Assembly (NCBI GenBank): GCA_016169945.1
Contig: JADLSH010000373.1
Coordinates: forward strand, 2,046,001 to 2,110,000
Source: Trachythela sp. YZ-2020
Taxonomy: Eukaryota > Cnidaria > Anthozoa > Malacalcyonacea > Clavulariidae
Length of the DNA stretch: 64,000 nucleotides
Direction: 5' to 3'
Shown here: one piece after another, positions 240 through 64,000 of the stretch
How positions within the stretch are numbered: position 1 is the first letter of the stretch
Layout: every line of letters starts with the position of its first letter
Notes under the pieces: model-generated
The model's database searches: none
What the model was told of the DNA's origin: nothing
Seen by the model: only the letters and a program-made list of their open reading frames with translations
Made by a program: the position numbers and the translations under genes

Positions 240-388
240 GGTAGTTCAACAGTTTCTTTTATTACGAAACATGGGGAAAAGCGATAGAAAGATAACAGCT
301 AACATGCCAAAAGAGAGCCTGCTACTGTTATAACCTTGCATCGTCAGAAGCTGACCGATTACTAATTAAGTACACTGCTTGTAAAAGC

Positions 389-34035: not shown

Positions 34036-34352
34036 TTCTGACCGATTTTCACTTCTGTTTCAATTTTTGTTCCTCGGATTTCCCATTTATTACAATTCAA
34101 ATAACAAAAGGAATCTATGAGAAACTCAAACAGCAACTTTTCGACTTGGAATTTAAGAAAAAACTATGATTTTTGTAGACGATTTCACAGAGAATGCACA
34201 TGCGATCGATCACAGGACAGACAGAGACAAAGAAATCGCGTTGCCATGGCTCCCCAAAGCAACCAATCACAGTCTAGCTAAATCAGAAGACTCTAAATTA
34301 CATACACCAAAAGGAGAAAAAGAAATAAACTTGTTTGAAGACACAATAAAAA

Positions 34353-35381
34353 ATGGCGACCGGTTGCGTTGTCGTCTGCTCTATACTATATTGCAAAATT
34401 TTATTACTAATGTTCTTATTTACCGGTTTAAATCCGCGTACAAGTGATCTTTGTGGTTCTGTTTTGTCAATTGATGCTAAATGGGACCGTAAATACTATC
34501 CAGGAAGAAATACTGGCCTCGTACGAAAGTCGAAACTTAAAGGTATACCAACCAGTGTTTGGCTGACAAGGATAACGAATTTAACAGTGAACGCTTTATT
34601 AGCCATGTCTTTCGTATTGCTTGCTCGGGACATCAGTCCTAATCCTGGACCAATCGATGTTCTTAAAGCCTCAGGTGCTGGAAATGGTATATCGCTCTGC
34701 GAATGGAATGTTCAATGCCTTACTGATACTAAGTTTGAAGAGATCTCACATTGGCTCGGCGCCCAGGGTGACAGAAATAGAGCTGATATAGTCATTTTAA
34801 CTGAAACATTTCTCACGAAAAAGAAGCCGAATTCGATCTATAATATATCCGATTACGATTTATATAGAAGGGATAGAATCGGCAAAAAGGGTGGTGGCAT
34901 ATTGGTGTATGTTAATAATCGATTGATATCAAGACAACGCGATGATCTAATGTCAACGAATTGTGAAATATTGTGGCTGGAAGTGTTTCCCTATAAGTCT
35001 AAATGTCCGATCCTTGTGGGTAGTGTTTATAGACCACCTTCATCGAAACGGCAAGACGACATAAACATTGGTTCTAATCTAGAAAATGCTTATTTATTAA
35101 ACTTTGAAATGATTATTATGGGTGATTTTAATATCGATATCTTGAAGCCAGACCACAACAAACATAAACTTTTCAAATTTATAAAGAATTTGCATTTAAC
35201 ACAATTGGTCAATCAAGCGACAAGGCCGATTTCCGGTTCATGCCTGGATCATCTTTGGGTCAGTCATCCCGAGAGAATTGCCTCAGTTGAAGCTAAGTCA
35301 TGCGGTTTATCTGATCATCTTCCTATAACCGCTCTGAGGAAATACAATAATGGAAGCAAAGTCGTGAAAGAACATAAATGA
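34353..35381 (+). CDS. LINE N-terminus: hydrophobic leader, 2A-like motif, APE endonuclease
   Basis: ATG 34353 begins a 342-codon frame. Residues 5-28 are strongly hydrophobic. At 34629-34652 the protein reads DISPNPGP, a match to the 2A core N-P-G-P with a variant upstream part, again following a hydrophobic stretch (LLAMSFVLLA). The endonuclease follows: SLCEWNVQCL, ILTETFL, YRRDRIGKKGGGILVYV, GSVYRPPSS, IMGDFNID and SDHLPI. This gives the full set of APE motifs with catalytic E, D, N and H. The endonuclease would nick target DNA for target-primed reverse transcription. The frame stops at 35381, where the linker to RT has suffered frameshift and deletion. Confidence 0.75.
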   Translation: MATGCVVVCSILYCKILLLMFLFTGLNPRTSDLCGSVLSIDAKWDRKYYPGRNTGLVRKSKLKGIPTSVWLTRITNLTVNALLAMSFVLLARDISPNPGPIDVLKASGAGNGISLCEWNVQCLTDTKFEEISHWLGAQGDRNRADIVILTETFLTKKKPNSIYNISDYDLYRRDRIGKKGGGILVYVNNRLISRQRDDLMSTNCEILWLEVFPYKSKCPILVGSVYRPPSSKRQDDINIGSNLENAYLLNFEMIIMGDFNIDILKPDHNKHKLFKFIKNLHLTQLVNQATRPISGSCLDHLWVSHPERIASVEAKSCGLSDHLPITALRKYNNGSKVVKEHK

Positions 35382-43800: not shown

Positions 43801-44709
43801 GAAATTTCCTTCCAAAGTGGAAAGGCTGACTACAGTAGATCTACAGGTAAATTAACCCATTAAGCTCCAGAGCTCCCCCATTGACAAGTAAAATCGTCTG
43901 GCATTTGTCAAAAAATTACATAGGGTGCACTGGGGTGCATTGCAGCTTAATGGGTTAAATATGTGCCAATGAAACAACATTAAAACACACTCTTTGAAAG
44001 GTGCTACAGTGTCTTCCCAATGATGAGTCATAAGCTGAAAAAATTATATTATGTAATGTTCTTACGGTATCGGTTGTTTGTCGCATCTCTTTTGAATACA
44101 TATGAGGTATACAATACACAGCAACATCTTTCAGGAAGTTTAAACAAGGCAGTTCATTAGTAATCACTCTTGACACAAGATGAATATAATTTTCCCATTG
44201 CTGACTGTGCTCTGATTTGCTAGGGCAACATTTACCATTTTCTAAGTCATTTAGATCACATATTGGTTTCTCATCAGATAGGTGGTTGCCAATTACCCTG
44301 TTCTCTGTAGACATAAGGCTACAATAATGTGCATCAGGGTTCTGATGTTGTTCAGTCATGTCATGTGTTATTTGATGCACATCCACGTTGTCTAAAACAA
44401 ACTTTCTACCAGTGTCACTTGGGTAAAGCGTAGCATTACCATGGTGTTTGCTGGGTTTGGTAACTTCGCAAGTATTTGCTGAGGATGTTTCACCATGTAT
44501 TTCTGGTTGGTCATCGAGATTACTATTCATCTTCCAGTGTGGAAATACTATGAGATGTTTTGGTGGTGATTGAAAGTGTTCCTGGCAATCTTCATTCTGG
44601 ATCCGAGCAAGAGATTCTAAAATCCTATCTCTCGTAACGGTGGCTGGATTCTCAGAGCTTGGGGCAACAAAGGTGGTGCAGTTGACGGTGGGATCTTGTG
44701 TGCTGCCAG
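40834..44709 (-). pseudogene. DUF6589-type gene, multi-exon, interrupted
   Basis: Exons on the minus strand, 5' to 3': 44709-44067 (LDNVDVHQITHDM), 43581-43499 (ILRDFGILLRTVF), 43294-42901 (GDQLKVERGINS, FTPKERNEGLHFEAADFHGG), about 42590-42383, 42340-41955 (AAHRIIWNRFF, NIPLDLALEHFNK), then, after an inserted TTAA element, 40997-40834. Phases agree for the first three: ACC|GTAAGA (0) to AAAAG|AAC, GACAA|GTAAGT (2) to TATAG|GTTA, GAG|GTTAGG. GDQL...ER, ERxEGL and the W/DLxLEHxN motifs are diagnostic of DUF6589. The biochemical role is unknown. A frame break near 42360 and two transposon insertions (TTAA element, LINE at 44.7 kb) kill this copy. Confidence 0.7.
40997..41955 (+). mobile_element. 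TTAA-type non-autonomous element in a DUF6589 exon
   Basis: TTAA at 40997-41000 and 41952-41955 bracket 951 bp, closely similar to the copy at 36890-37886, with the same inverted termini. The flanking minus-strand coding sequence rejoins in frame when one TTAA and the element are ignored (NYLIKVV then GLIDNEAFVF). Confidence 0.82.
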
Positions 44710-44731
44710 GTTATCATTTATTTAATATGTG

Positions 44732-45915
44732 TCATGGCGTCCGGACATGTCCTGAAGCTCTCGCTGATATTATTGTGTCTTACACTGATAAGCATCTATC
44801 GAAATCAATATGAAAGAAAATACCGACAGGATATCGTTTATGCGATATCGTTGCCTGTTCTTTTACCACCAAACTACCTTACGAAAAGTAGAGATAAGTC
44901 GAACAAATGTATTAACAAAATAAAGTGGTCGTACACTCGAGTGGCGTATTACTCAAACACAACTGCTTCTAGACAGATGTTGCTGGTCTGTGGAGATGTA
45001 GAGAGTAACCCTGGCTGGGAGACTAATGCGTCGGGAACAAACAGTATGGACTATCTGCAAAATTTCGCAGAGGGAATAAGCCATTGCAAGAATAATATGA
45101 ACATAGCACATGTTAACATACGAAGCTTGAGAAACAAAGTCGACGAGGTAAGATTACTATTAAAGATTTGCCGGTTTGATATCTTGGCTTTAACTGAAAC
45201 ACATTTAGATAGCAGTATATCGAACCAACAACTGGAAATTGAGAACTATAAAATTGCACGAAGAGACAGGAAAGGTCGACAAGGAGGGGGATGTCTTGTT
45301 TATATTGTGAACTCAATATGCTCAACTAGACTGAGATCTCTTGAAAGCGGATCAGACATTGAGCAAATATGGCTAAAAGTTATGACAAATACTAAAGCGT
45401 TTATTGTTGGAGCGATATACAGACCACCGTCAGACACCTCCTTTTATGAACACTTTGATAAAGTTTTAGAACATGTTTGGGTAAAATATAAAAATATAGT
45501 TATCGCTGGAGACTTCAACTGTGACCTTACACAAACGGAAACGGGAATAATTACATCGCCTTTGGGAATTAGATTATTCAACTCATTAGCTCAATTCAAT
45601 TTTGCTGTCGTAAACAAACAAGCAACTAGAATTACAAATACATCATCAACATTGATTGATCTTATTGTTACCAATAACGAAAGCCTGATTTCAAAAACAA
45701 GAACTTTAGATCTCGGGATTTCAGATCATATGTTGGTTTATGCTGCGGTAAGAACAAAAATTAGAAGGCCCCCACCAAAAATTATCAGGTCTCGGAATTT
45801 TAAATGCTTCAATGCGGGAATGCGGGAGACTTTGTACGGGACATTGAATCAGCTCCTTGGTCGGTTTGTTCTATATTTGAAAATCCTGATGATAGCTATT
45901 GGGCATGGCAGATGA
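44732..45915 (+). CDS. LINE hydrophobic leader, 2A-like motif and APE endonuclease
   Basis: The best start is ATG 44732 (gtcATGGCG). Residues 6-22 are hydrophobic (LSLILLCLTLISI). At 44977-45018 the protein reads MLLVCGDVESNPGW, a near-perfect 2A motif whose final Pro is Trp. The endonuclease follows with NIAHVNIRSLRN, LALTETHLD, RRDRKGRQGGGCLVY, GAIYRPPSD, IAGDFNCDL and LGISDHMLV, all expected catalytic residues present. Coding becomes garbled after ~45810 through a frameshift; the RT continues in another frame. The first product would be released at the 2A site if it works. The terminal Pro-to-Trp change makes skipping doubtful. Confidence 0.8.
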
Positions 45916-47453
45916 TTTTCAATGATATATGTGACAAACATGCTCCTTATAGAGATATAAAATTGAGAACACAGTCACTCCCTTGGATAAATGACGAAAT
46001 AAAGCACAAAATGAATCTTCGGTTAAAAACTTTACGATTAGCACAACAGACTAACAATCCTGAAATGTGGGCTCGGTATAAAGAACTCAGAAACCAGATT
46101 ATGGCTCAGGTAAGAGCGGCTAAATGCAAATATTACAAAGGACTGTTTGACGAGGTAAAGGACTGTAAGTCCTATTGGTCTTTGATAAAGAAAGATACAG
46201 AGAAAAACCGGATCCGCCCTATTCTAGGGATTAGGAAAGAGAACGGCGGAATTGAAATTAGTGATAACGGTAAAGCAAACATCTTAAATGAGCATTTCTC
46301 GTCGGTTGGCAAGAAATTAGCTAATGAATGCATGACGACTCACATCCAGAATTCAGCAGCTTATATAAACCGTATTACCCCGACTATCATGAACATAGAT
46401 GTAAGCCAGGATGCAATAGCACAGTCTTTGAATAAATTAAAAGCGAACAAAGCTTGTGGGCCAGATGAAGTTTCGCCAAAGTTGTTAAAGTATGCAGGGG
46501 ATGCTATTTTGCCTTCTCTTACATCAATGTATTGTATTAGTGCCACAACACATAAAGTACCTGATATATGGAAAAAGGCAAAGATATCTGCTATATACAA
46601 GAAAGAAGATGAGACAGACAAAAACAATTACCGTCCTATATCATTATTGCCTGTACCGGGAAAAGTTATGGAAGCATGTGTAGCAACAACCTTAACATCA
46701 CACTTGGAGCAACACAACTTACACAGTCGGCACCAGTGGGCATATAAAAAATACCACTCCACAGAAATGTTAATGGTAAAGATGACAGAGGATTGGAGAA
46801 GAGCATTAGATAACAGATACGTTGTTGGTGTTCTATTCATAGATCTCAAGAAAGCGTTTGATTCAGTATCACATCCTATACTGCTGAATAAGCTTCATGG
46901 ATTGGGGATTTCTGGAGATATATGGTCTTGGATTAAGGACTATCTATCAAACCGAACTCAAATAACGGTGGTAAATGGCTGTCATTCAAAACAAATGAAA
47001 GTTAAATTTGGAGTTCCTCAAGGCTCTGTACTTGGCCCCACTTTATTTTCCATATTCTGTAATGACCTGCCTGAAATTTTCTGTGGGGATGATGATACAG
47101 AATTGGAAATGTATGCGGACGATACAACCTTATATGTTATCGGACCAACTGTAGATATTGTAACTATTAGACTTGACGAAGTATTGGGTAAATTTTACAA
47201 TTGGTGTAGAATTAATTCCCTCACACCTCACCCAGGAAAAACGGAATATATGCAGATCGGAAGGAAAAAATTCATTGGACCACTCAGAGGAATAATGTTA
47301 GGAGATTATTGCATCAAACGAGTTCACTCCAAAAGATGTTTAGGAATGGAAGTAGACGATGAGCTAAAATGGGTCAAGCACATATTGGAGTTAACACAAT
47401 CTTTCTCACAGAAAATAAATCTATTAAAATTTTTTGTATTTTTTACCAACTAA
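45804..47453 (+). CDS. LINE reverse transcriptase
   Basis: A long frame with linker helices, then KANKACGPDEVSPKLL, KISAIYKKEDETDKNNYRPISLLP, HQWAYKKYHSTEML, VLFIDLKKAFDSVSHPIL, KFGVPQGSVLGPTLF, MYADDTTLY and HPGKTEYMQIG. All core RT motifs including YADD are intact. It makes cDNA at the nicked target. The frame is lost at a T run near 47437 and resumes at 47434-47940. No domain is missing. Confidence 0.85.
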   Translation: MLQCGNAGDFVRDIESAPWSVCSIFENPDDSYWAWQMIFNDICDKHAPYRDIKLRTQSLPWINDEIKHKMNLRLKTLRLAQQTNNPEMWARYKELRNQIMAQVRAAKCKYYKGLFDEVKDCKSYWSLIKKDTEKNRIRPILGIRKENGGIEISDNGKANILNEHFSSVGKKLANECMTTHIQNSAAYINRITPTIMNIDVSQDAIAQSLNKLKANKACGPDEVSPKLLKYAGDAILPSLTSMYCISATTHKVPDIWKKAKISAIYKKEDETDKNNYRPISLLPVPGKVMEACVATTLTSHLEQHNLHSRHQWAYKKYHSTEMLMVKMTEDWRRALDNRYVVGVLFIDLKKAFDSVSHPILLNKLHGLGISGDIWSWIKDYLSNRTQITVVNGCHSKQMKVKFGVPQGSVLGPTLFSIFCNDLPEIFCGDDDTELEMYADDTTLYVIGPTVDIVTIRLDEVLGKFYNWCRINSLTPHPGKTEYMQIGRKKFIGPLRGIMLGDYCIKRVHSKRCLGMEVDDELKWVKHILELTQSFSQKINLLKFFVFFTN

Positions 47454-50259: not shown

Positions 50260-50920
50260 GTAATCAAGATAATCACAGCTGTTATTTAGTTTTAGTACAT
50301 AATGTATTATTATCATCAATTTTATCCACTGAGCTTATAACATGACTGGATGAACTTAAAGTCAATGATAATATACATTATGCAATGGACCTTTACTATG
50401 GTGGCCCATTGTTCTCATAAGAAAATACAGATTTAAGTGAAGTTATTAGAAAAAAATATCAAAATAATAAAAAACAAAAATAGTTACTAGTGTTTTTAAA
50501 AATTAAATAAATAAAAAAATAAAAGAGAGAAAAAAAACCCCAAAAAATATCAATTAATAAAAAAAATAAAAATAAAACATGGGAAATATAGTTTGAATTA
50601 AACATTGGAAATAACAAGCAATTCGAAAGCCAAAATCCGAAAACAAAGTGAAATTAAAATGAGATATCGTTACGGAATAATTATGAGAACACTGGGGCAC
50701 GCACTGGCCCATTGTTCTCATAGCGTTTCAAATCAAAACTGAAATAATGTTTCACTGGCCCAGTGTTCTCATAGTCCGCGACATTTTTGGTCAGCAGATG
50801 TTCCCCGCGCAAAAGATCGCGTTTCTTGTTTCACATATAAACTAGTGCACTTCGAGCCTGGAAATTGAGAGAAATCTTAGTAAATTTAAGCTTCCATATA
50901 CTTGTGAAGAACCATGGCCG
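50260..50920. other. A-rich intergenic stretch with a thrice-repeated motif
   Basis: No gene. TGGCCCATTGTTCTCATA occurs at 50402 and 50705, and as TGGCCCAGTGTTCTCATA at 50757. Between are A-rich runs. It lies just beyond the 3' end of the U2 fragment. Confidence 0.5.
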
Positions 50921-50924
50921 AGGT

Positions 50925-50995
50925 CCAAAAATCAGTTTAATATATGAGTTAGGCATTGCCTAACATATCAGATATTAAGCTGATAAGAACAGAAA
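50925..50995 (-). ncRNA. U2: U2 snRNA, 3' portion up to the Sm site (split gene)
   Basis: The minus strand from 50995 reads TCTGTTCTTATCAG, CTTAATATCTGATAT, a short stem (TTAGGCAATGCCTAA), ATATATTAAA and TGATTTTTGG. This is the U2 order from about nucleotide 38 through stem-loop II to the Sm site, with the IIb stem replaced by a different but still pairable one. Similarity to known U2 fades beyond the Sm site, so stem-loops III-IV are divergent or lost. The 5' 36 nucleotides lie at 56094-56059, on the other side of the retrotransposon. U2 pairs with the branch point; this copy cannot be made intact. Confidence 0.75.
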
Positions 50996-53900
50996 TATTT
51001 ATTAGAAATAAAGAACTTATTTACATTTAGTGTCCTAACAAGCTGATATAATACTTAAATTTATATAGTAAAATTTTTATATATACAAAAACTGGTACGT
51101 GTAATCTTAAAAGATTATTCAGTTCGTAATGTTCAATAAAATATCATAATATTATAAAAAGTTGAAATTGGAATGAAATATAAGTCACAAATTTAGAAAT
51201 ATAAATGTTTGTTTTACTTTTATGTTTGTTCATATTTGTGGAACACCAGTTAGATGTTCAACATAAATGTTTCGTGAACCTTTGATTGCATCCGCACAAC
51301 AAAGTTTTCGAAATAGAGTTCTATATCTTCTGCTTACAAACAGTTCATCAAGTACTTGATCATTATCCGTAAACCAACCTCCGAGAGGACCAACAACGAA
51401 ACCGAATACTTTAGCATGCATGTTGATTGATTCAAAGTAGTCGACTAGATAGTTATATTTCGTCTGTTTTCTTTCTGCAGCAGATCTCAGTGCATCTTCA
51501 CCATTTTCAAACGGGCAGGTTACATCAATTATGGTTACTTTGTTGCCATCCGTTACTACTATGTCAGGTCTGTTACTACCAGGGGCTCCAGGAACTATTT
51601 TATCAACTGTGAAGGTGCCTCGATGAATAACATTACTAACTCTTTTAAGGATGCTATCATGTCTCTTTGTTATTGCTGTCATGTTCGGTTTGCAATGACA
51701 TATAATATGCGGAAGGGTTTCAATGTCCGTGTTACTATGACATTTTCGACATTCTGATGAATTGCCATTTGATAACCTACTCTTCACCGCGTTAGTGGGC
51801 AGGGTATTTGTTCTCGCTCTGTGGATGAAGCGCCAATCACAGAAACTTAGTCCTGTACCGTCATAGCACCAGCTATTTGTGGATGGAAATTTGGATGTTT
51901 GGAGACATCTAGCTACTTTGCCTTGATCGGGTAGGGACTTGAGGTCGTTGGCGTGTTTCTGTAAACGATGACGATGGAGATATGACGCTACAGCTTTGGC
52001 ATTTGCCGATGATGCATTATCAACACTAACTTCTGGATTCGTCATAGCATTAGTGATTTTCACATGTAATCTTCTAGTTGCGATTCTACAACAAGACCAT
52101 AATGTTTGACAATTATTAGCACTGCTGCGATTCTTAAAATCATCTTCATATGAGCCCGATAGAAATGTATCAATTTCCTCATTAGTTGCGCTACGTTTTA
52201 AACACCGATCTACTACTGATTTTAATTGACCACGCGTAATTTCCTGAATGAACGGGTCCGATGAAGACAAGATCTTTATGGTGTGGACTACTTTTTGTAC
52301 ATGTCTTTCATCGTAGGGGTCTTGAAGTCCTAGGCAACCAACTGACTTATCTGCGAAAAAATATACTTCTACTAATTTCTTACGGTAACTCTCTAGCGAT
52401 TTCTTCGTGACAGGACACGCACGTAGGGCATATGTTAATCCAGGTTGTATAAACGTTCGAATTGCGTCCAACTTTTGCCACGGCGTTAGTAGCAAATCGC
52501 GTATCTTTCCCAGGTCTTTAATTAACTTATCAGTTATTGATAGCATATCTTCAGAGTTATAAAGTAATCCTATAGGGACACCCAAATACTTATAACATTC
52601 TTCTTTCATTAAGAAGGGGATATCTTTATTTTGAACTTGAAACATATGTTCACTTACTCGACATTTCTCTTTCCTCGCACAGGTTAACGATAAGGAACAA
52701 CATTTATCGGGACGAAAGGATAGGTTTAGAATGTCAGCCGCTGAAGATACTTCTTTTAGTATATCTTGAAGCCCTTCTTTTGTTTTACTGATCAAGACTA
52801 AGTCATCGGCATATGCCAATATGGAGATTTTTTGTCCATATAATTCAAAAGCAATCTCATCGTTATCATTGCACTTTGATACAACGGATCTAATTAGAAG
52901 CTCAGTTGTGAGGTTAAATAATATAGGGCTGATTGGACATCCTTGTTTCACGCCTGCATTTATATTTATTGGGTCTGTTTCCTCTGTTTTTGATGTTTTA
53001 ACGGTAGTTGTTGCGTCCGTGTAAATGTCTTTAATCAAATCAATTAAAGATTGAGGAAAACCCATATGACTTAGTGTGGTGTAAATAGCATCATGTGGTA
53101 CACTCCCAAACGTTACATGAGATCTAACCAAGCAAAGTAACAATTATGTTCTTTTCTCTTACATTCAGCTATTATTGATTGTAAAGAAAATGTGTGTTCA
53201 TGACATCCTTCTGATGGTCTTGCGCATTTCTGTTGCGTGGACATCAATTCTTTATCAATAGCGAACTTGGAAACGCGCGATGATAATAAGGAAGTGAGTA
53301 ACTTGTATATGCAGGACATCAAAGCAATTGGTCTAAAGTTACTTGGGTCACTGCTGTCTCCTTTTTTATAGATGAGTATTGTGGTAGCTTGCTTCCATGC
53401 ATTTGGTATTCTCTTTTCAAGAAGGCATCTATTAAAAACTAATTGTAATAAGGAGCCATTAGGGTCTACAAGTTTTAAATGACGATACTCCACTTTATCT
53501 CTCCCGGGAGAAGAGTTCGACATTGCTTTCAATTTGCGTTTAATTTCTTTATCCGAGAACAGGGCCATAAGGTTTGGATCTTGCGCAGCAGTTGGAACAT
53601 GTTCAGTTAAGGAATCTACAAGTTCATCAATATCAATGTGTTTTTCAGCAAAGGTTTCCGAAAAATAATTCTGAGCGCTTTCTTTAGATCCTGTGTATGT
53701 AACATTGTTACTAGGGTCTTTATGGTTTGGACGATTGGATGCTTGTCTTGGTGTACCTTTTCTACCAGAACTTGTATTTGACATTTCTTTCCCTTTGTCA
53801 ACCACCGCCGATGCCAAATCTTCACATGTGTTACAAAACTCACTAAAATCCGTAGCAGATGTTATCTTGCTAGACCATACTCGAACAAATTCGGGGGTGT

Positions 53901-56058
53901 TTTCGACATCAGGGTTGGGATGAAAAGGAATTCCACTATTTGTTGAACCAGGTGTAATGGTATTTGTTGCATCATCTTCCATAGAAGGGATTGTTCTCTC
54001 TGAATCAATTTGACTTTCCTGATACGTTGAATAATTATGATTATCTGAAGTAGATGGAAAGGAATCATGATGTTGTTGGTCAAATGATTGAGAAGGACTT
54101 TCATAAGAGTTTGAACTCAATAAGGTTTGTGGATTATTTGGGATTAAGGTGTGTTCTTGAATTGGGTCATTATTATCCTCAACAGTACAATCACTTAAGA
54201 AGACCGTTGATTAAAATACTTGTTGATGGTGTATATTGGTGTTAGGGATTGGGTCACTATTATTCTCAGTTTCCAATAATTGTTGACGGAAGGAGTTGCT
54301 ATTAGGGATTGGATCACTGCTATTCTCAACAGTACAATCACTTAAGACGACCGTAGATTCAAGCCATTGTTGATGGTAATTATTGATACAGGATTCAGGT
54401 CTTGGAGGGGAGGTACAATTGGTGTCATAATCTTCATCAAAGTCACAATCATAAAGTATAGGTTGATGATGTTTGGGAGTTAAATCATAGCTATCCTCTG
54501 TATTGCAACCAGTTAAGGTGACCGGCGATTCAACTAAATGATGTTGAATGGTTTGATCATCATCAGGGTTATAAACTTCATTTGTGTCTACTTGAGGTGT
54601 ATAATGAAAATTTGAAGGGTTATTTGGAGGGGTAGGACTGGAAGGTACTTGGGTCATATGTTGGGATGATGTTGGGGAATGGTTTTGGGATGGAAGGTCT
54701 TCGGGGATATTGGATTTAGTTGCGGATATATACGACTGTATTGGTGTAGGGGATTTAGGTGCCCATTTCTTCTGATTCTTTTTGGAAATTCCATGCACTA
54801 CTTTACAATGGACACTCACACCTTGAGCCCCTTTAAACTTTCTTTCACTACAAAGTGTGCATTCTGCATCCGATAACAATTCAACATGTGAATGTTTCTC
54901 TTTAAAATGTCTCTTGAAATTGGGAAAAGAGCTGATTATAGTGTTACATAGACAACAATTAAACTTTTTTCCTTCAGGATATTTACGAATTACAGTTACA
55001 GACAGAACATTCTCCATATTGTCACATTTATGCACTTTCCTATGACCATTTATACCTCTTATTGAATCAGACGTAAATGGACATTCCGAGCATTTAAACT
55101 CCACTGACTCCATCATTTAAATTTATAGGAAAGTCATATGAAAACCATAACTGAAACGAACACTCTACTTAAACTGCAACAATGACACAATAACCACGAT
55201 AATGAATTAAAGTTCACCAAGAAACGGGAATTCCCCTTATAATCGACGTTTAGTAAACTTGAATAATAATTAGCCGGGAGGCTAATTTAAAGTGACAGTT
55301 GGAAAAAGATCTAAAATCCTTGTAGTTTGAATTCCTTTAACGATATTGTAACGAAACTCGCTGGAGCTGTTATAAACCGTGATATGTATGAACAGGCCAA
55401 TTTTCAGCTTTATAACTCCAAAGACACAGACGATATAGGCAAATTATTATTCCGACGGGATATAAACAAAATTACTACAGACTGTACGCAACAAACTCCA
55501 AAGTACTAATATATCACGAACTAAACAACAAACCAGTATGAAATATATATTAAAATGTTCGCATCAACGGGACAAATACAGTCATAACACTTAAATCCAC
55601 AGATAAGTTACCCGCGACGATCAATTGACAAGCAAAGATGATAATAACACAAGTGTTCCAGACTTAATTTAATTCCAAAATATACCAACGGTCAAATGTA
55701 CAAATTCAACAATAACAGAACAACCATACCACTTGCTAACTCCAGACTTTGACACAATGGAACAAATATAAATCACTAGACACGGAAAAATTTCCAAATA
55801 AATCTGACCAGTAGTTCCGAGGATATAATAAGAAAGCCAAAGTTCCAAGTACGTAGCGGACGACACAATAATGACAGCAGACACAACAATATAATACAAA
55901 TAACTCTTTCCACGTTCAGGATACAATATAACAGATTAGATAATTACAATCACCACGTCTTAATCTTTCTTTTGATATGTATTTTGTGGAATAGAATTTA
56001 AATTTTGCTCATTTATTATTTGATTTACACGGAGCGTACTCAAACGTGAACCAGCGAT
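50996..56058 (-). mobile_element. U2-snRNA-targeted RLE retrotransposon (Utopia-like)
   Basis: A ~5.06-kb minus-strand element precisely flanked by the two halves of a U2 snRNA gene. It encodes N-terminal C2H2 zinc fingers, a reverse transcriptase and a C-terminal restriction-like endonuclease in what was one ORF. This architecture is that of the R2 superfamily (NeSL/R2 type); Utopia is the described lineage of this kind that targets U2 genes. The 5' UTR is ~940 bp (55117-56058). The 3' UTR is ~230 bp, ending in an AT-rich run without long poly(A). One nonsense and one frameshift are the only visible coding defects. Confidence 0.82.
51230..55116 (-). pseudogene. Zinc-finger/RT/RLE polyprotein of the U2-targeted element
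   Basis: Starts ATG 55116 (MMESVEFKCSE). Three C2H2-type fingers come first (KCSECPF...HRKVH, CCLCNTI...HFKEKH, CTLCSER...HCKVVH), probably for target recognition. A Pro/Ser-rich linker with repeats (STVVLSDCTVENSSDPIP) follows. RT motifs: TTILIYKKGDSSDPSNFRP, NAGVKQGCPISPILFNL and YADDLVLIS. At the C-terminus a CCHC knuckle (CRKCHSN ... HIICHC) precedes an RLE core (RPDIVVTDGNKVTIIDVTC). The total is about 1,290 codons. An in-frame TAA at 54211-54213 (GAA to TAA by comparison with the linker repeat) and a frameshift near 53113-53143 interrupt it. The enzyme would nick the U2 gene and prime reverse transcription there. Confidence 0.82.
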
Positions 56059-56094
56059 CTACACTTGATCTTAGCCAAAAGGCCGAGAAGCGAT
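56059..56094 (-). ncRNA. U2: U2 snRNA, 5' 36 nucleotides (split gene)
   Basis: The minus strand from 56094 matches the first 36 nucleotides of metazoan U2 without a mismatch (ATCGCTTCTCGGCCTTTTGG and on to GTGTAG). This includes stem-loop I and the branch-point-recognition segment GTGTAG. At 56058 identity stops and the retrotransposon begins. Confidence 0.88.
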
Positions 56095-56843
56095 GCCTTT
56101 TTTCGCTTTCGCCCTCCATCTTTATAGGAAAAGCAGGCGTTTTGAAACCGCGGTGACCACGCGCGAGAATAGGACGTCAACAAAGGCTTGATTGCTCGTG
56201 AAGTTCGTCGTTCTAATTGGCGACTAGAGAATTTGCTCGCATGCATTTGCACGCGCTCGAGCATTGCGTGTAAATGGCATGGGAACGAAGGTGGCGATGT
56301 GTTCGCCTCTTGTCGAAGTTGCCGTTTTCGGCATGGCGATAATTGTGAGCATAAGCGTATCGTATTTCACGCCAGGAGTATGTGGGATGAAAAGGCAAGC
56401 GATATTGTTGTGACCCGGAAAGCGTTCGGGTCACGCTTCTTGATTTAGGTGTTATATTTTGGCCATTTTGAGGCTTAATCGTTGCTAGGTATGCGATTGT
56501 ATGTTTCGCCTGCGTTTGAGTGACGTGTGATCGGCGCTTGGAATGTACGTGTGACGAGTTGCATTACATCGCACGCTATATCTCAATTCACTAGACGACA
56601 TGACATGTGATGGAAGTAATCGTTTACGACTAAACCGGCACGCTATATTCATTAGCTGAAGTGACCATATATTATCGGAGAAAGATATTATAAAACACTC
56701 GCCTTGTTTGTTTGTATGCTGGTGGCGATGAGACGTACAGGCCGGTTTGCACGCTGTCCACCGCTGTAGTTGTGTGTTGTTGACATACTGTAAAGAAAGA
56801 GAATTAGTACATGATCGATTTATGATTTGTTTGCAAAATAAGA
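56095..56843 (-). promoter_or_regulatory. Spacer between U1 and U2 genes, including the U2 promoter
   Basis: About 750 bp between the U1 3' end and the U2 5' end, less AT-rich than its surroundings. The first ~90 bp above U2 carry a TATA-like run (minus strand TCCTATAAAGATGG, 20-40 bp upstream) and GC-rich boxes. The proximal sequence element must lie here, but no consensus can be assigned from one copy. No protein frame is convincing. Confidence 0.45.
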
Positions 56844-56844
56844 A

Positions 56845-56880
<36 letters not shown>

Positions 56881-57007
56881 ATTATACGCTCGAGTTACCC
56901 ACATTAGGGGTAATCGCAGGAGTCAACCCAGTCTAAGTGCAATGAAAGGGCCTCATCCTGAGAGGACCTCCTAGTTGATCAAGGTGCCTCTCGCGTCAGG
57001 TAAGTTT
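56844..57007 (-). ncRNA. U1: U1 snRNA gene, full length
   Basis: 164 nt, the standard U1 length. The 5' end (57007) reads AAACTTACCTG, so the 5'-splice-site-pairing segment ACTTACCTG is exact; nucleotide 2 is A instead of T. Further matches: ATTGCACT in the stem-loop II loop (U1A site), CTCCTGCGATTACCCC ... GTGGGTAACTCGA for stem-loop III, the Sm site ATAATTTCTGGTAG, and the terminal stem (GGGGACCTGCGTTCGCGC...CCCC). The loop of stem-loop I (U1-70K site, usually GATCANGAAG) reads GATCAACTAG, a departure that may weaken binding. It may be a functional variant. Confidence 0.9.
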
Positions 57008-57300
57008 ATGTTGGATAAAGGTCAAATCCTTTCCCAACTGGGGAAAATGCAATGGATTTGCCAGAATCAAGGAGAGTGCACCCGCACGCAAACGACTAGG
57101 GAGTCGAACCCTATCTCCTCATTAAATACACCGCCCATTTATTATTATTCTGACGCGGGCCTGTGGTGTATTTAAGCTTAATTGTATATCTATTTATGTG
57201 TGTTTAGTTAAAAAAGTATTCAATTAAAAGAAAGCAACTACCTACAAGAGACAGAAGCAAGAAAAACCTAATGTATAAAACAAAAGTAATTAAACTAAGT
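57008..57300 (-). other. U1 upstream region and LINE 3' end
   Basis: On the minus strand the first ~60 bp above the U1 start should contain its proximal element; none can be named. At 57084-57115 TAGGG-TTCGACT-CCCTA forms a perfect tRNA-like T arm, but no matching acceptor or anticodon arms are seen. At 57121-57176 AAATACACC and GGTGTATTTA form an inverted repeat around an ATT run, perhaps the LINE's 3' border. Confidence 0.4.
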
Positions 57301-59971
57301 TAAAAAGAGAAGACCAGCTCCTCACCCTCGAAGTGTCCCAAGATGCCCCTTGCAAGCCAATCGCGCTCAAAAGATCGAAACTGAGCGGGCGATCTACATT
57401 TGCGGGCCGTAAGGCAAAGCACAAATTTGATTTTGGCAATGGCCTTCTTCAAACACTCCGACTCCACCGGCACCTTTGCACGGAAACGGAAATCGCAACG
57501 AGCAACCCAGATTACATGCTTTACAACATGTAACATCCAGATGATAAGAATGAGGATGTTGCGACGCCGTTCCTCAGAAAACCCAAAGAGCAACTCCTCG
57601 ACAACAAAGGGACCGGCAGAAGGATCAACCAAAAGAAGATTGACGTACACCCAACCGTACATCAACCGAGCAAAATCACAGTGGTAGAAAAGATGCTCCA
57701 ACGTTTCCTCCGCTTCACCGCAGAAGCAGTTAACGTCCACGTTGGCCATGTGAAATTGCCTAACCAACCTAGAAGCAGTATAGAGAACACCGTGTGCGAG
57801 CTGCCAATTGAGATCAATGACAACACGGTCAAAAGATGTAGCGTGCAACTGATCCCAAGTTTGGGGCCAGTGCAAAGGACCGTACTCAGGTTCAAACTTA
57901 CTTATACAATGCGGCTCTTTATATGTTTTAGTTCGGATCAGATTAGAGACCGATCGCGAACTTATAGTGCGCGCAGGTATTGGGTTGGCAGAAGATGCCA
58001 ACAAAGAAAACTCGCCATTAGCCTTACCCCCGCATAGCATCCGCCAAGTGCGGAATAGCAGTTCATAATAGGGCGGAAGGGATGACAGTTGACGACGAGA
58101 AAATTGACATAGTAACGCCTCATCGGGCGTTAAATCAAGGCAGCAGGATATATAATATTTAAAGAAATCTTTCCACTTTGCCCTGGGGTCAGCCAAGTAA
58201 CGTTTGACCCATTGCAAAGAGAAAGCCTCGGCCTTTTGTTTATAATTAATAACTCCAAAGCCGCCCTGCGACTTTGGAAGACACACCGTGGTCCTGGCAA
58301 CAAGATCCTTCTTACCAGACCAAAAGAAAGACCACACGGCCTTACTAATGCGTTTCTCCGCCCAATCGGGAATAATAAAGACGTGACACAAGTGCCAAAT
58401 CTGAGAAAGGGCTAAGAGATTTATAATTGTAGTTTTGCCTTGGAAAGAGAGCTTACGGCCTTGCCAAGCGGACAAGCGCTGCTCGAGCTTAGCAACAGGC
58501 TTCTCCTAAGTTAATTTGGTATAGTCAGAGGTGGAAAAAGTAGCACCTAACAAAGGAAGCTCCTTGACCCACCGAACACCAAAGGGGGTGTCCGTACGGT
58601 CTTTCCAGGACCCCAACCACATTCCTTTTGATTTACCTCGATTGAGGCGCGCCCCAGAAGCCTTCTCAAAAAGAGAATAAATATCAAAAACTTCCGTCAT
58701 GGACTCGTCTGTAGTGACAGCAATCGTCGTGTCGTCCGCATTACCCCGAGCACTTAAACTGCTCCAAGGAATCCGGGAGGAAAACGCCGTTGACATCTGG
58801 CGAACAACGAATGCTGACTGCAAGAATCTCAATGCAGAGCACATACAAAAGAGGAGAAAGTGGGCAACCTTGACGCACGCCACGAGACGGGCGAAAAAAA
58901 GAAGACGTCCAACCGTTTACAACAACGGCGGACTCGACTTCATTATAAAATAGTTTAATCCAATTCCGGAAACCAGCACCGAAATTGAATGTGGCGAGGA
59001 TGCGTTGCAGAAAGTCCCAATCAACACGATCGAAAGCTTTCTCCTGATCTAATGAAAGGAGAGCGATTGGAAGATCCTCTCTTTCCGCATACTCGATCAG
59101 ATCCCGAACGAATGCAAGATTTTCAGAGATGGTGCGACCCGGAACACCACACGTTTGATCCGGGCCCACAACAACATTCATCACGTTCAAAAGCCGACCG
59201 GAGATAGCCCTGGTGGCGATCTTATAATCCACGTTTAGGAGACTGATTGGACGCCAGTTCTTCGTCTCCAAACGATCGTCTTTCTTATATAATACTATAA
59301 TAAGGCCACAACGCTGAGAGGTCGAGAGTTGGCCGCAATCGTAAGCAACGTTTAGAATGCGTACCAAATCAGCGCTGAGAACGGGCCAAAAAGAAAGATA
59401 AAATTCCATGGGAAAACCATCGGAACCCGGTGTTTTCCCATGAGCCATACCCTGCAAAGCCGCAAAGCATTCGGCGACGGTAAGATAACCGTCACACGAT
59501 TTGCTCTTGGCGTCAGAGAGGCAACGAGTAACCTTGGCAAGCATCTCATCTTGCGCAGCGGGGTCACACTGTTCAGCTGTAAAGAGCCCTTGGTAGTACC
59601 GCTGCCAGACACCTAAGATGTCGATAGGGTCGTGGCAAACGATACCGGACTGTGGGTCTCTAATAGCAGTGACCGCCTGCTTTGCCCGATGCTTGGATTC
59701 CAAACCAAGGAAAAAAGAGGAAGAAGACTCTCCCTCCTCCGCCCACCTGCAGCGAGATCGAATTTTTGTGCCCCACGTGCCTCATTCAAATGAATGGCAC
59801 GCAACTCTTCCTGCACGGCACACAGCTGAGCAAAGGAGGAAGAATCCCCCGAATTAAAAAGTTGCTGCAACCTACGCATCTGCGTAGTCAGCCGAGATTT
59901 TTGTTGGCGATTGGCAACAGCCTTACCCTGGGCATACGAGCGCGACAGCGCACGCAGATAGTATTTGCCCT
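57300..59971 (-). pseudogene. L1/Tx1-like LINE ORF2, 5'-truncated copy A
   Basis: Covers the linker, RT and C-terminal zinc region of ORF2 and ends with its natural stop (ELVFSF, 57300-57302). RT motifs: PGSDGFPMEFY, KKDDRLETKNWRPISLLN, LLSLDQEKAFDRVDW and GVRQGCPLSPLLYVLC. The C-terminus has the VDVNCFCGEAEETLEHLFYHC knuckle. Damage relative to copy B: two extra T near 59765, an extra base in the YADD motif near 58741 and a Trp-to-stop at 58506. It starts abruptly at a GATC (59972-59975), where copy B ends. About 97% like copy B by eye. Confidence 0.8.
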
Positions 59972-62534
59972 GATCTACATTTGCGGGCCGTAAGGCAAAG
60001 CACAAATTTGATTTTGGCAATGGCCTTCTTCAAACACTCCGACTCCACCGGCACCTTTGCACGGAAACGGAAATCGCAACGAGCAACCCAGATTACATGC
60101 TTTACAACATGTAACATCCAGATGATAAGAATGGGGATGTTGCAACGCCGTTCCTCAGAAAACCCAAAGAGCAACTCCTCGACAACAAAGGGACCGGCAG
60201 AAGGATCAACCAAAAGAAGATTGACGTACACCCAACCGTACATCAACCGAGCAAAATCACAGTGGTAGAAAAGATGCTCCAACGTTTCCTCCGCTTCACC
60301 GCAGAAGCAGTTAACGTCCACGTTGGCCATGTGAAATTGCCTAACCAACCTCGAAGCAGTATAGAGAACACCGTGTGCGAGCTGCCAATTGAGATCAATG
60401 ACAACACGGTCAAAAGATGTAGCGTGCAACTGATCCCAAGTTTGGGGCCAGTGCAAAGGACCGTACTCAGGTTCAAATTTACTTATACAATGCGGCTCTT
60501 TATATGTTTTAGTTCGGATCAGATTAGAGACCGATCGCGAACTCATGTTGCGCGCAGGTAATGGGTTGGCAGAAGATGCCAACAAAGAAAACTCGCCTTT
60601 AGCCTTACCCCCGCATAGCATCCGCCAAGTGCGGAATAGCAGTTCGTAATACGGCGGAAGGGATGACAGTTGACGACGAGAAAATTGACATAGTAACGCC
60701 TCATCGGGCGTTAAATCAAGGCAGGAGGATATATAATATTTAAAGAAATCTTTCCACTTTGCTCTGGGGTCAGCCAAGTAACGTTTGACCCATTGCAAAG
60801 AGAAAGCCTCAGCCTTTTGCTTATAATTAATAACTCCAAAGCCGCCCTGCGACTTTGGAAGACACACTGTGGTCCTGGCAACAAGATCCTTTTTACCAGA
60901 CCAAAAGAAAGACCACACTGCTTTATTGATACGTTTCTCTGCCCAATCTGGGATAGTGAAGACGTGACACAAGTGCCAAATCTGAGAAAGGGCTAGGAGA
61001 TTTATAATTGTACTTTTTCCTTGAAAGGATAATTGACGACCCTGCCAAGCTGACAAGCGCTGCTCGAGCTTAGCAACGGGCTTCTCCCAAGTAAGTTTAG
61101 TATAATCTGAGGTGGAAAAGGTAGCACCTAGCAAAGGAAGCTCCTTGACCCACCTAACACCAAAGGGGGTGTCCGTACGGTCTTTCCAGGACCCCAACCA
61201 AATTCCTTTGGATTTACCTCGATTGAGGCGTGCCCCAGAAGCTTGCTCAAAAAGAGAGTAAATAGTAAACACTTCTGTCATCGACTCGTCTGTAGTGACA
61301 GCAATCGTCGTATCGTCCGCATACCCCGAGCACTTAAACTGCTCCAAGGAATCCGGGAGTAGAACGCCGTTGACATCAGGCGAACGACGAATGCTGACTG
61401 CAAGAATCTCAATGCAGAGCACGTACAATAGAGGAGAAAGTGGGCAACCTTGACGCACGCCACGAGACGGGCGAAAAAAAGAAGACGTCCAACCGTTTAT
61501 AACAACGGCGGACTCGACTTCTGTATAAAATAGTTTAATCCAATTCCGGAAACCAGCACCGAAATTGAATGTTTCGAGGATGCGTTGGAGAAAGTCCCAA
61601 TCAACACGATCGAAAGCTTTCTCCTGATCCAAAGAAAGAAGAGCGATTGGAAGATCCTCTCTTTCCGCATACTCGATCAGATCCCGCACGAAGACGAGAT
61701 TTGATCCGGGCCCGCACGTTTGATCCGGGCCCACAACAACATTCATCACATTCAAAAGCCGACCGGAGATAGCTCTGGTGGCGATCTTATAATCCACGTT
61801 TAGGAGACTGATTGGACGCCAGTTCTTCGTCTCCAAACGATCGTCTTTCTTATGTAATACTATAATAAGGCCCCGACGCTGAGAGGTCGAGAGTTGGCCG
61901 CAATCGTAAGCAACGTTTAGAATGCGTACCAAATCAGCGCCGAGAACGGGCCAAAAAGAAAGATAAAACTCCATGGGAAAACCATCGGAACCCGGTGTTT
62001 TCCCATGAGCCATACCCTGCAAAGCCGCAAAGCATTCGGCGACGGTAAGATAACCGTCACACGATTTGCTTTCGGCGTCAGAGAGGCAACGAGTAACCTT
62101 GGCCAGCATCTCATCTTGCGCAGCTGGGTCACACTGTTCAGCTGTAAAGAGCTCCTCGTAGTACCGCTGCCAGACACCTAAGATGTCGATAGGGTCGTGG
62201 CAAACGATACCAGACTGTGGGTCTCTAATAGCAGTGACCGCCTGCTTTGCACGATGCTTTGATTCTAAGCTAAGGAAAAAAGAGGAAGAAGACTCTCCCT
62301 CCTCCGCCCACCTGCAGCGAGATCGAATTTGTGCCCCGCGTGCCTCATTCAAATGAATGGCACGCAACTCCTCCTGCACGGCACACAGTTGAGCAAAGGA
62401 GGAAGAATCCCCCGAATTAAAGAGTTGCTGCAGCCTACGCATCTGCGCAGTCAGCCGAGATTTTTGTTGGCGATTGGCAACAGCTTTACCCTGGGCATAC
62501 GAACGCGACAGCGCACGCAGATAGTATTTGCCCT
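57391..62534 (-). repeat. Tandem duplication of a ~2.57-kb LINE segment
   Basis: 57391-59971 and 59972-62534 are head-to-tail copies, each beginning at GATC. The third GATC, at 62535, continues into unique endonuclease sequence (GATCCCACC). The junction GATC at 59972-59975 is shared by both parental sites. Confidence 0.85.
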
Positions 62535-63411
62535 GATCCCACCAGTCCAGACCCGAAGCATAGATGGTATTTGCTTCCTGGGACTGCCAGAAGGACCAAA
62601 ATGCACGAACTAGCGCACAATATTCCTCATCTGCCAGCAGAGAGGTGTTAAATTTCCAGACCCCTGGACCACGTGCAAAGGAATCATCAGTGGTGAACTT
62701 GACCAGCAAGTACTGATGATCCGAAAGGAAGGAAGGATAGTAATCACATTCCTTAATGCACCGTTTCATTGCCACGGGAGCCCAAACCATGTCTATCCTT
62801 GAAGCAAACTCTCCCGAACCATGCGTCCAGGAGTAGGCAGTCTGCGTAGGATGGAATGTACGCCAGACAGGAAAGGTTTGCGTGTTGGACAGCAAGGATT
62901 GGAGAGCAGGACCACTCTCCTGCACCTTTGAACATTTACTACCGATGAAGGAGGAACGCCGCAGACGATCAGCGTCCTCGTTTAAAACAGAATTGAAATC
63001 GCCACACACAAACGTGGGGCGGCTCAGATCAATTAAGTCGGATACAGAGGTGAAAAAACGATTACGCTCCGGGTTCCTATTCGGAGCATACAAGCAGGCA
63101 AAACCTAACGTTTCCTCACCGAGCTGAATGATGGCCTGAACAAACCGGCCCTCCTCATCACGAGAGACCTGCTTGACAGTATAGGTATCCTTATATAAAA
63201 TAGCAGTGCCACACCGTTTGTTGGAGATAGATGATGACACTACTCTAAACCCAGAATTTGCAAACCAGCGACGAATTGATTCGTGCGAAGGGGCATGTGT
63301 CTCTTGTAGACAGACGACATCCGCCTTCATACACTTTAACCAATCAATAAGTGCTGTTCGCTTTAAACGGTCACAAAGACCATTAACGTTCAAACTGAGG
63401 AGGTTGAACAT
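59923..63411 (-). CDS. L1/Tx1-like LINE ORF2 (endonuclease-RT), copy B
   Basis: 1,162 codons from ATG 63411. The APE endonuclease occupies residues ~1-245 (LSLNVNGLCDRLKR, CLQETHAP, CLYAPNRNPERN, VCGDFNSVL, SRIDMVWAP, SDHQYLL). RT follows with KTPGSDGFPM, NWRPISLLN, DQEKAFDRVDW, GVRQGCPLSPLL and YADDTT at ~697-702. A CFCGEAEETLEHLFYHC knuckle lies near the C-terminus. LSLNVNG and the Cys/His end fit the L1/Tx1 group. Two defects: the last ~25 residues are replaced by readthrough across the duplication junction at 59975, and a small rearrangement near 61700-61730 replaces about ten residues between motifs 2 and A. ORF1 overlaps its start by 29 nt. Confidence 0.85.
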   Translation of the reverse strand: MFNLLSLNVNGLCDRLKRTALIDWLKCMKADVVCLQETHAPSHESIRRWFANSGFRVVSSSISNKRCGTAILYKDTYTVKQVSRDEEGRFVQAIIQLGEETLGFACLYAPNRNPERNRFFTSVSDLIDLSRPTFVCGDFNSVLNEDADRLRRSSFIGSKCSKVQESGPALQSLLSNTQTFPVWRTFHPTQTAYSWTHGSGEFASRIDMVWAPVAMKRCIKECDYYPSFLSDHQYLLVKFTTDDSFARGPGVWKFNTSLLADEEYCALVRAFWSFWQSQEANTIYASGLDWWDQGKYYLRALSRSYAQGKAVANRQQKSRLTAQMRRLQQLFNSGDSSSFAQLCAVQEELRAIHLNEARGAQIRSRCRWAEEGESSSSFFLSLESKHRAKQAVTAIRDPQSGIVCHDPIDILGVWQRYYEELFTAEQCDPAAQDEMLAKVTRCLSDAESKSCDGYLTVAECFAALQGMAHGKTPGSDGFPMEFYLSFWPVLGADLVRILNVAYDCGQLSTSQRRGLIIVLHKKDDRLETKNWRPISLLNVDYKIATRAISGRLLNVMNVVVGPDQTCGPGSNLVFVRDLIEYAEREDLPIALLSLDQEKAFDRVDWDFLQRILETFNFGAGFRNWIKLFYTEVESAVVINGWTSSFFRPSRGVRQGCPLSPLLYVLCIEILAVSIRRSPDVNGVLLPDSLEQFKCSGYADDTTIAVTTDESMTEVFTIYSLFEQASGARLNRGKSKGIWLGSWKDRTDTPFGVRWVKELPLLGATFSTSDYTKLTWEKPVAKLEQRLSAWQGRQLSFQGKSTIINLLALSQIWHLCHVFTIPDWAEKRINKAVWSFFWSGKKDLVARTTVCLPKSQGGFGVINYKQKAEAFSLQWVKRYLADPRAKWKDFFKYYISSCLDLTPDEALLCQFSRRQLSSLPPYYELLFRTWRMLCGGKAKGEFSLLASSANPLPARNMSSRSVSNLIRTKTYKEPHCISKFEPEYGPLHWPQTWDQLHATSFDRVVIDLNWQLAHGVLYTASRLVRQFHMANVDVNCFCGEAEETLEHLFYHCDFARLMYGWVYVNLLLVDPSAGPFVVEELLFGFSEERRCNIPILIIWMLHVVKHVIWVARCDFRFRAKVPVESECLKKAIAKIKFVLCLTARKCRSGQILSACAVALVCPG

Positions 63412-64000
63412 TAGAAGTAGTTATAGTAGAGTCTGGAGCTGAGATAATGGCACTAAAGGCCACATTTGATAGGTCAACACCCAGAAGAAAATCCTCATTT
63501 TCAGCCACCCTGGTGGTCGAAGATGGAACTGAGGATGAATATCCGGCCTCGGTACATTCCAAGAACATACCTTCGGAATCGGAAATAGAGTCAAAAATGC
63601 TAATGCCCAGAAGGGAATCGCAATCCGAATGGAGCGGATCCACACTTCTGGGCGCGGAACTGTTGGGCGAGTTCGCAGACATTTCATAGCTCGCAGAGGG
63701 TTGAGACTCTGCTACAGAAGGAGAAAGAGGAACATCCGTCACCGACGGCTGCTGTTCGTCAGATGGTACAGACGGAGCGTCACGCTCGGGGGCAATTACC
63801 TCAAGGGAAACAACCGGATCTATAACATTCTGACCATCAAGACAATCCTCCTCCATGTCCATGCTATCAGTTAAACTCGCAAACCGATTAAGGTGGACGA
63901 ATGGCGACTGAAGTAGCATGGCTGGTGTTACACAAACGTCACTCTCAGACTCGCTCGATGTTCGAACGTGTTTATAACGTTTAGGTCGAGAGTGACGTGT
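63383..64000 (-). CDS. LINE ORF1, C-terminal part (continues beyond the window)
   Basis: The frame is open from the right edge, through Met at 63919, to the stop at 63383. The visible ~205 residues are acidic and Ser/Pro-rich (SVPSDEQQPSV, SSVPSSTTRV) with no zinc finger or RRM, so nucleic-acid-binding domains, if any, lie further upstream. It overlaps ORF2 by 29 nt in a different frame, so ORF2 needs reinitiation or frameshifting. Confidence 0.65.
   Translation of the reverse strand, partial: TRHSRPKRYKHVRTSSESESDVCVTPAMLLQSPFVHLNRFASLTDSMDMEEDCLDGQNVIDPVVSLEVIAPERDAPSVPSDEQQPSVTDVPLSPSVAESQPSASYEMSANSPNSSAPRSVDPLHSDCDSLLGISIFDSISDSEGMFLECTEAGYSSSVPSSTTRVAENEDFLLGVDLSNVAFSAIISAPDSTITTSNVQPPQFER

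What the first reader, a model, noticed from the sequence alone, without database searches (positions are those of the whole stretch)
50925..56094. U2 snRNA gene split by a zinc-finger/RLE retrotransposon (Utopia-like)
Seen: nucleotides 1-36 of U2 match exactly at 56094-56059, and U2 resumes at about nucleotide 38 at 50995. A 5.06-kb element with C2H2 fingers, RT and RLE lies between, in the same orientation as U2. Known: Utopia-type R2-superfamily elements target U2 genes. Inference: this is such an insertion, with only a few bases lost or changed at the junction. Just one nonsense codon and one frameshift make it a young copy and a useful source for target-site and 3'-end structure.
Basis: partly seen in the sequence, partly recalled or inferred. 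Interest (0 to 1): 0.88.

Follow-up and report, generated by a model that had tools for sequence, protein, structure and literature searches.

The report
Utopia retrotransposon inside a U2 gene
A jumping gene sits exactly inside a U2 splicing-RNA gene in what looks like a soft-coral genome, where most U2 and U1 gene copies outside one tandem array are split at fixed positions by such jumping genes.

Summary
U2 nt 1-36 lie at 56094-56059 and U2 resumes at nt 39 at 50993; a 5,065-bp RLE retrotransposon with three N-terminal C2H2 fingers lies between, same strand. It is Utopia-like by site, domains and 3' junction; the RT tree alone cannot name it. In the held 578-Mb genome a second copy, 98.3% identical over 3,454 sites, sits in another U2 gene with the same 5' junction. 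Of 77 U2 3' halves, 26 are unbroken at nt 39 (25 on the array contig); 45 of the other 51 follow an element end at nt 39. Two top-strand modes coexist (2-bp loss; 20-bp duplication), and one family of the same clade sits in (TAGTG)n. Unexpectedly, the window's U1 gene is also split: an APE-type LINE is joined at U1 nt 3 with a 16-17-bp duplication; 25 of 32 non-array U1 copies have such a LINE end. Two literature searches listed no U1-specific non-LTR element.

The parts
56059..56094 (-). U2 snRNA gene, nt 1-36 (5' half)
   Evidence: exact match; Rfam U2 42.5 bits, below gathering; 92% match to genomic U2-U1 unit across 57005-56059
50994..56058 (-). Utopia-like non-LTR retrotransposon, 5,065 bp
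   Evidence: between the two U2 parts; second copy on C101 98.3% identical over 3,454 sites
55117..56058 (-). 5' untranslated part of the element, starting directly after U2 nt 36
   Evidence: same 5' junction GTGTAG|ATCGC in the C101 copy
54214..55116 (-). first reading-frame piece (301 aa) with three C2H2 fingers by eye; ends at a nonsense codon 54211-54213
   Evidence: the C101 copy is open here
53116..54210 (-). second piece (365 aa): linker and N-terminal RT; carries a 102-bp in-frame deletion near 53706; frameshift near 53119
51233..53143 (-). third piece (637 aa): rest of RT, zinc knuckle, RLE; 42-bp in-frame deletion near 52364
   Evidence: Pfam RVT_1 2.4e-22; R2 structure 9nl2 1.3e-35; alignments
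52802..52813 (-). RT catalytic YADD
   Evidence: alignments A1/A2
51458..51571 (-). RLE motif RPD-x12-D...K
   Evidence: aligned with relatives and with R2
51692..51751 (-). zinc knuckle CRKC...H...C before the RLE
   Evidence: Cys and His columns invariant in A2
50994..51232 (-). 3' untranslated part (with stop codon), ending ...AATATT at U2 nt 39
50912..50993 (-). U2 nt 39 to about 120 (3' part; stems III-IV missing)
   Evidence: 98.8% to array U2; Rfam 52.3 bits
56844..57005 (-). U1 snRNA gene from nt 3 (Rfam 57007-56844), upstream neighbour of U2 as in the genome's tandem unit
   Evidence: Rfam 151.3 bits
57006..64000 (-). APE-type LINE joined to U1 nt 3; continues past the window to about C124:2112794 (about 9.8 kb in all), where its 5' end follows U1 nt 3-18 (16-17-bp duplication)
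59926..63420 (-). LINE ORF with Exo_endo_phos, RVT_1, zf-RVT (1,165 aa)
   Evidence: Pfam; zf-RVT below its curated cutoff

Best explanation
50994-56058 is a dead copy of a Utopia-like RLE retrotransposon that inserted into a U2 snRNA gene by target-primed reverse transcription. Inferred mechanism: the zinc fingers and RLE recognise the U2 sequence around AAGTGTAGTA|TCTGTTC; the RLE nicks the bottom strand between nt 38 and 39; the RT copies the element RNA from that nick; the top strand is cut near nt 36, so nt 37-38 are lost. Shown: both junctions, the domains, a second copy of the family at the same site with the same 5' junction, and many related families of this genome joined at nt 39. 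Inferred: the nicking order and which domain reads which bases. The family belongs to a set of U2-inserted elements that interrupt almost every U2 copy found outside one tandem U2-U1 array, in a genome whose elements are most like those of octocorals.
For: U2 halves and exact junctions. RT, RLE, knuckle. Paper: Utopia resumes at nt 39, no duplication in arthropods, one to three N-terminal fingers. Own genome: C101 copy 98.3% identical, in U2, same 5' junction. 3' halves: 77, of which 51 are not part of an intact core; 45 of the 51 (window included) are element ends at nt 39. 5' halves: 64, of which 39 are interrupted, 24 of them at nt 35-39. Related families with uninterrupted ORFs in the same clusters.
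Against: No named Utopia sequence (Repbase) was available, so the RT tree places the element in a clade with octocoral proteins (100/100), apart from the turtle and most insect proteins, but cannot name it. One family of the same clade lies in (TAGTG)n and not in U2, so the clade as a whole is not strictly U2-specific. The window family has only two copies among the scored matches; the C101 copy is truncated, so its 3' junction is not seen, and its U2 half carries an extra 37 bases. A 5' U2 stop at nt 36 could also arise by deletion, but it recurs in several families.
Confidence: 0.95

Rival explanations
1. The element landed in U2 by chance or entered by recombination between repeats, without sequence-specific targeting.
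For: Only two copies of this exact family are among the scored matches.
Against: Both copies are in U2 with the same 5' junction; 45 of 51 non-intact U2 3' halves are element ends at nt 39, from several families.
Confidence: 0.01
2. A Keno-like (APE, Tx1-type) element inserted in U2 at the same site.
For: Keno shares the 3' flank (PMC4640811). An APE element precedes U2 in this genome in L010; L042 has a similar A-rich end, its coding part not seen.
Against: The window element has an RLE and zinc knuckle, no APE domain in the three pieces scanned, and aligns with R2 over RT and RLE.
Confidence: 0.01
3. The element is an RLE lineage outside Utopia (its own octocoral clade) that acquired U2 targeting separately.
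For: Octocoral-type rows form a 100/100 clade apart from turtle, ant, bee and flea rows.
Against: Same nt-39 3' junction, fingers and RLE as described for Utopia; the paper shows several deep lineages and names the group by site and RT affinity.
Confidence: 0.1

Closest known systems
Utopia non-LTR retrotransposons (Kojima and Jurka 2015, PMC4640811; parts 1-4 of 5 read, figures not seen)
   Same: U2 target, 3' junction at nt 39, RLE, N-terminal zinc fingers, several families sharing few U2 genes, intact genes outnumbered by broken ones
   Different: Cnidaria is not in its Table 1. In this one genome both the no-duplication mode (given there for arthropods) and the 20-bp duplication mode (given there for reptiles) occur. 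A family of the same clade sits in (TAGTG)n.
Keno (Tx1-type, APE; as described in PMC4640811)
   Same: same U2 3' flank
   Different: APE endonuclease, no RLE; not this element, but possibly the APE element in L010
R2 (28S rDNA), solved structures 9nl2, 9dou, 8gh6
   Same: RT, knuckle and RLE homologous in order
   Different: 28S target (recalled); only distantly related in sequence
Dada-U1 DNA transposons (PMC3706591, search listing and start of abstract; PMC8869645, passages)
   Same: U1 snRNA gene as target
   Different: DNA transposon with 6-7-bp duplications; the window's U1 insertion is an APE-RT LINE with a 16-17-bp duplication

Membership tests
Utopia | insertion in U2 with the 3' flank starting at nt 39 | tested here: met
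   window 50993 = nt 39; other families at nt 39 genome-wide
Utopia | C-terminal restriction-like endonuclease with zinc knuckle | tested here: met
Utopia | one to three N-terminal zinc fingers | tested here: met
   three C2H2 patterns by eye in 54214-55116; Pfam zinc-finger hits below curated cutoffs
Utopia | single long ORF | tested here: inconclusive
   broken here; related copies L020 and L021 have one open frame of 1,350 and 1,413 aa
Utopia | RT groups with named Utopia/NeSL families | tested here: inconclusive
   no Repbase sequences on hand; nearest named rows are octocoral proteins
Keno | apurinic-like endonuclease | tested here: not met
   no APE domain in the three pieces scanned; RLE present
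R2 | insertion in 28S rDNA | tested here: not met
   the target is U2
U1-specific APE LINE (the neighbour at 57006-64000+) | 3' end joined at U1 nt 3 in many copies | tested here: met
   25 of 32 non-array U1 places; 16-17-bp duplication around the window's LINE
Tx1 clade | RT tree position | not tested
   assignment recalled; only pairwise comparisons were made

The most novel reading that the evidence does not exclude
In this genome U1 genes are the home of a lineage of APE LINEs not described before (several families joined exactly at U1 nt 3, one of them in this window). Their RNA 3' ends carry a conserved stem with a bulged AUUGCAC, the U1A-binding heptamer of U1 stem-loop II (recalled), so they may reach U1 loci by borrowing a U1 snRNP protein. 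In parallel, U2-specific Utopia-like families share one bottom-strand nick, differ in the top-strand cut, and one moved from U2 (GTGTAGT) to (TAGTG)n repeats that keep that half-site.
Probability: 0.15. Interest if true: 0.85.

Novelty: new variant of a known kind. Interest (0 to 1): 0.66.

Why it matters
It extends U2-specific RLE elements to what looks like a cnidarian. It shows one genome in which nearly all U2 and most U1 copies outside a tandem array are occupied, and gives natural contrasts for target choice: two top-strand cleavage modes on one site, and a switch from U2 to a microsatellite that shares the half-site. U1-joined LINEs would add a new target for non-LTR elements. Site-specific RLE elements are of interest as insertion tools, and the junctions here hint at which bases matter.

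Tried and rejected
Chance match of U2 halves: rejected by exactness and genome-wide recurrence. Hidden U2 stem IV elsewhere in the window (12-base pattern recalled from memory, up to 2 mismatches): 6 matches against 5.59 expected, so nothing. HDV-like ribozyme at the 5' end: no Rfam match up to E = 3 in 50400-64000. 3' UTR structure: not above shuffles. Relatives in viral contigs, bacterial/archaeal contigs and plasmids: none by protein. U2 DNA patterns: 0 in viral contigs, 1 contig in bacterial/archaeal genomes, L001, with an intact U2. First idea that the host U2 was a truncated variant: rejected, host U2 is complete elsewhere. First idea that five C82 U2 cores were intact genes: rejected, they are cut at nt 58. 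The P0222 and P0223 ORFs as pieces of the Utopia-like proteins compared: no match better than E = 0.13. An ATCGCT at the element's 5' end that repeats the start of U2 was not pursued.

Counts and their limits. Junction classes were read by eye from printed flanks. The 51 non-intact 3' halves: 45 element ends at nt 39 (two of them, C82:339006 and C82:1405961, with A instead of T at nt 39); 3 carry U2 nt 22-38 (nt-25 insertion); 2 carry GTA after an A-rich tail; 1 (C100:10758) is near intact. For most of the 45 only the end was read, so their coding type is known only where a long locus was fetched. The 39 interrupted 5' halves: 24 at nt 35-39, 12 at about nt 25-27, 3 other (C82:1399123, C370:2051264, near-intact C100:10773). 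Of the 25 intact cores on C100 only 20 also have the U2 start within 2 mismatches; at least one (C100:37061) lacks the U2 start. C82 and C370 clusters share near-identical copies, so some counts may be of alleles or duplicates. Of 83 protein matches (69 of 1,842 candidates scored) I looked at 3' flanks at nine places without a listed U2 half: three long copies lie in (TAGTG)n; one (C123:3181013) is followed by U2 nt 39-58 with one mismatch; five gave no recognisable 3' end. Only one array unit on C100 was read in full. The fold of LINE 3' ends used 18 of the 25 joined copies; its 3 pairs with changes on both sides separate two family groups, so they are few independent events, and the window's 3' end alone folds no better than shuffles (z = -0.87). 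The first tree used 51 of 221 fetched proteins, chosen for names and length.
Full report
Observation. U2 nt 1-36 are exact at 56094-56059 and U2 resumes at nt 39 at 50993, on the same strand, with 5,065 bp between. U2 nt 37-38 are missing. The downstream part matches U2 to about nt 120 and then stops; most other U2 3' halves read in this genome continue into stems III-IV, and a few others are also cut short. Upstream, U1 and the spacer to U2 nt 36 match the genome's tandem U2-U1 unit at 92%, so the locus is an isolated piece of that unit.

The element. Three reading-frame pieces carry three C2H2 fingers (by eye; Pfam below cutoff), RT, a zinc knuckle and an RLE; RT and RLE align with R2 proteins of solved structure. 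Lesions are a nonsense codon, a frameshift in RT motif A (motif name recalled), and in-frame deletions of 102 and 42 bp in conserved stretches. So this copy is dead and not notably young.

Relatives. The closest named protein is from Paramuricea clavata (60% over 84% of the query), with unnamed environmental proteins nearer. In a 55-row tree with three R2 rows as outgroup, the element lies in a 26-row 100/100 clade with Paramuricea, Xenia, Dendronephthya, hagfish and sea-spider rows, apart from turtle and most insect rows; dragonfly, barnacle and spider rows are unresolved. A second tree of 48 rows with 16 rows of this genome (window included) and no R2 agrees. Host identity as an octocoral is inferred from this and from an 89% match of one family to Paramuricea; no host gene was tested.

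Genome test. The window is C124:2046001-2110000 of a 578-Mb assembly. The protein search gave 83 matches (69 of 1,842 candidates scored). One other place is clearly of the same family: C101, 98.3% identical over 3,454 aligned sites, in a U2 5' half, same junction GTGTAG|ATCGC. It lacks the window's stop, frameshift and 102-bp deletion, has its own damage, and its U2 half carries 37 extra bases. Pattern searches (up to 2 mismatches) gave 77 U2 3' halves and 64 5' halves. 26 of 77 3' halves are joined to an intact core: 25 on contig C100, within a tandem array of 1.46-kb U2-U1 units in its first 37 kb, and one on C370 with a 1-base loss near nt 17. Of the other 51, 45 are element ends at nt 39. 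25 of 64 5' halves run into the core, but the five on C82 among them stop at nt 58; 39 are interrupted before it, 24 at nt 35-39.

Two cutting modes. Families d (four copies) and f (one) on C82 resume at nt 39 but keep nt 39-58 on the 5' side as well, a 20-bp duplication (five of five). The window family, L021, L015's and c copies stop at nt 36 on the 5' side; L020 and b run to about nt 39. The paper gives no duplication for arthropods and 20 bp for reptiles. Here both occur in one genome, and d and f group together inside the octocoral-type clade, so the mode probably changed more than once (inference).

A target switch. Three copies of family g (C380 and two on C351) are not at U2; all three have (TAGTG)n-type repeats on the 3' side, and both 5' flanks examined have them too. 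U2 nt 31-37 read GTGTAGT, so the repeat keeps one half of the U2 site. Inference: recognition of that half is enough for insertion. That the repeat is partly the element's own tail is not excluded, but its presence on the 5' side argues for a target.

A second U2 site. APE-type LINEs interrupt U2 at about nt 25: 12 of 39 interrupted 5' halves stop there, and 3' flanks start at nt 22 in three of three seen, a short TAAG duplication. The APE coding was shown in L011; L013 shows RT and a separate frame with a zinc knuckle.

U1. The window's U1 has no normal promoter: the LINE of 57006-64000+ is joined at U1 nt 3. Its 5' end, near C124:2112794, follows U1 nt 3-18, so the LINE is flanked by a duplication of 16 bp (17 if a shared A is counted), and upstream of that lies the 3' end of another such LINE. 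Of 58 U1 places, 26 are on C100; of the other 32, 25 have a LINE 3' end joined at nt 3 and 7 keep the normal promoter, one of these with three extra bases. In the fetched loci 14 places show the promoter and U1 nt 1 to about 15-18 followed by a LINE 5' end. The U1 LINE, the nt-25 U2 LINE and the L010 LINE are 34-38% identical. PMC4640811 lists only Dada-U1 for U1. Searches for U1 snRNA gene with non-LTR retrotransposon (3 papers) and for Keno/Tx1/retrotransposon/snRNA (8 listed) showed no such element by title or abstract start; most of those papers were not read. Repbase was not searched.

3' ends of the U1 LINEs. 18 copies share two helices around a bulged AUUGCAC (or near form), with 3 of 9 predicted pairs showing changes on both sides between family groups. 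The motif equals the U1A-binding heptamer (recalled); mimicry is possible but untested, the window's own copy reads AUUGCAU and one group AUAGCAC, which speak against it.

Verdict. By itself it is a new, cnidarian-type member of Utopia-like elements; the listings (25 of 1,736 shown; 2 papers) held no paper with the word Utopia on cnidarians. Its setting, nearly all dispersed U2 and most dispersed U1 copies occupied by several retrotransposon families with fixed junctions, is the larger find.

Noticed in passing
window 57006-64000 and on to about C124:2112794: An APE-type LINE is joined to U1 nt 3, with a 16-17-bp U1 duplication and a second such LINE upstream; 25 of 32 non-array U1 copies in the genome have such a LINE end.
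   Followed up: yes
L127, L129, L130, L141, L142: A family of the Utopia-like clade sits in (TAGTG)n microsatellite instead of U2; the repeat shares GTGTAGT with the U2 site.
   Followed up: partly
L011, L013-L014, L017, L019, L060, L065, L066, L116-L118, L146: LINEs (APE type where coding was seen) interrupt U2 at about nt 25, a different site from nt 39, with a TAAG duplication.
   Followed up: partly
L018:2970-5242 (also L016): A 2.27-kb element in U2 has one 567-aa ORF without RT or Pfam domain; 17 homologues including Paramuricea. A second RT-less ORF (P0223), not similar to it by BLASTP, precedes U2 in L018 and L013.
   Followed up: partly
window 57391-62538: A 2.58-kb stretch of the U1-joined LINE is tandemly duplicated at about 95% identity.
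   Followed up: no
window 9158-10093, 32451-33500, 34350-35378, 44686-47450: Other transposon remains: hAT, Mutator-like, and APE-RT LINEs.
   Followed up: no
window 296-2950: An 885-aa open frame without a Pfam match.
   Followed up: no
L001 (JAOZOU010000036.1): A contig of a bacterial MAG carries eukaryotic U2, U1, 5S and histone genes, so it looks like contamination.
   Followed up: partly
P0171: An RT of this kind named Providencia heimbachae (MAG) is probably animal contamination.
   Followed up: no
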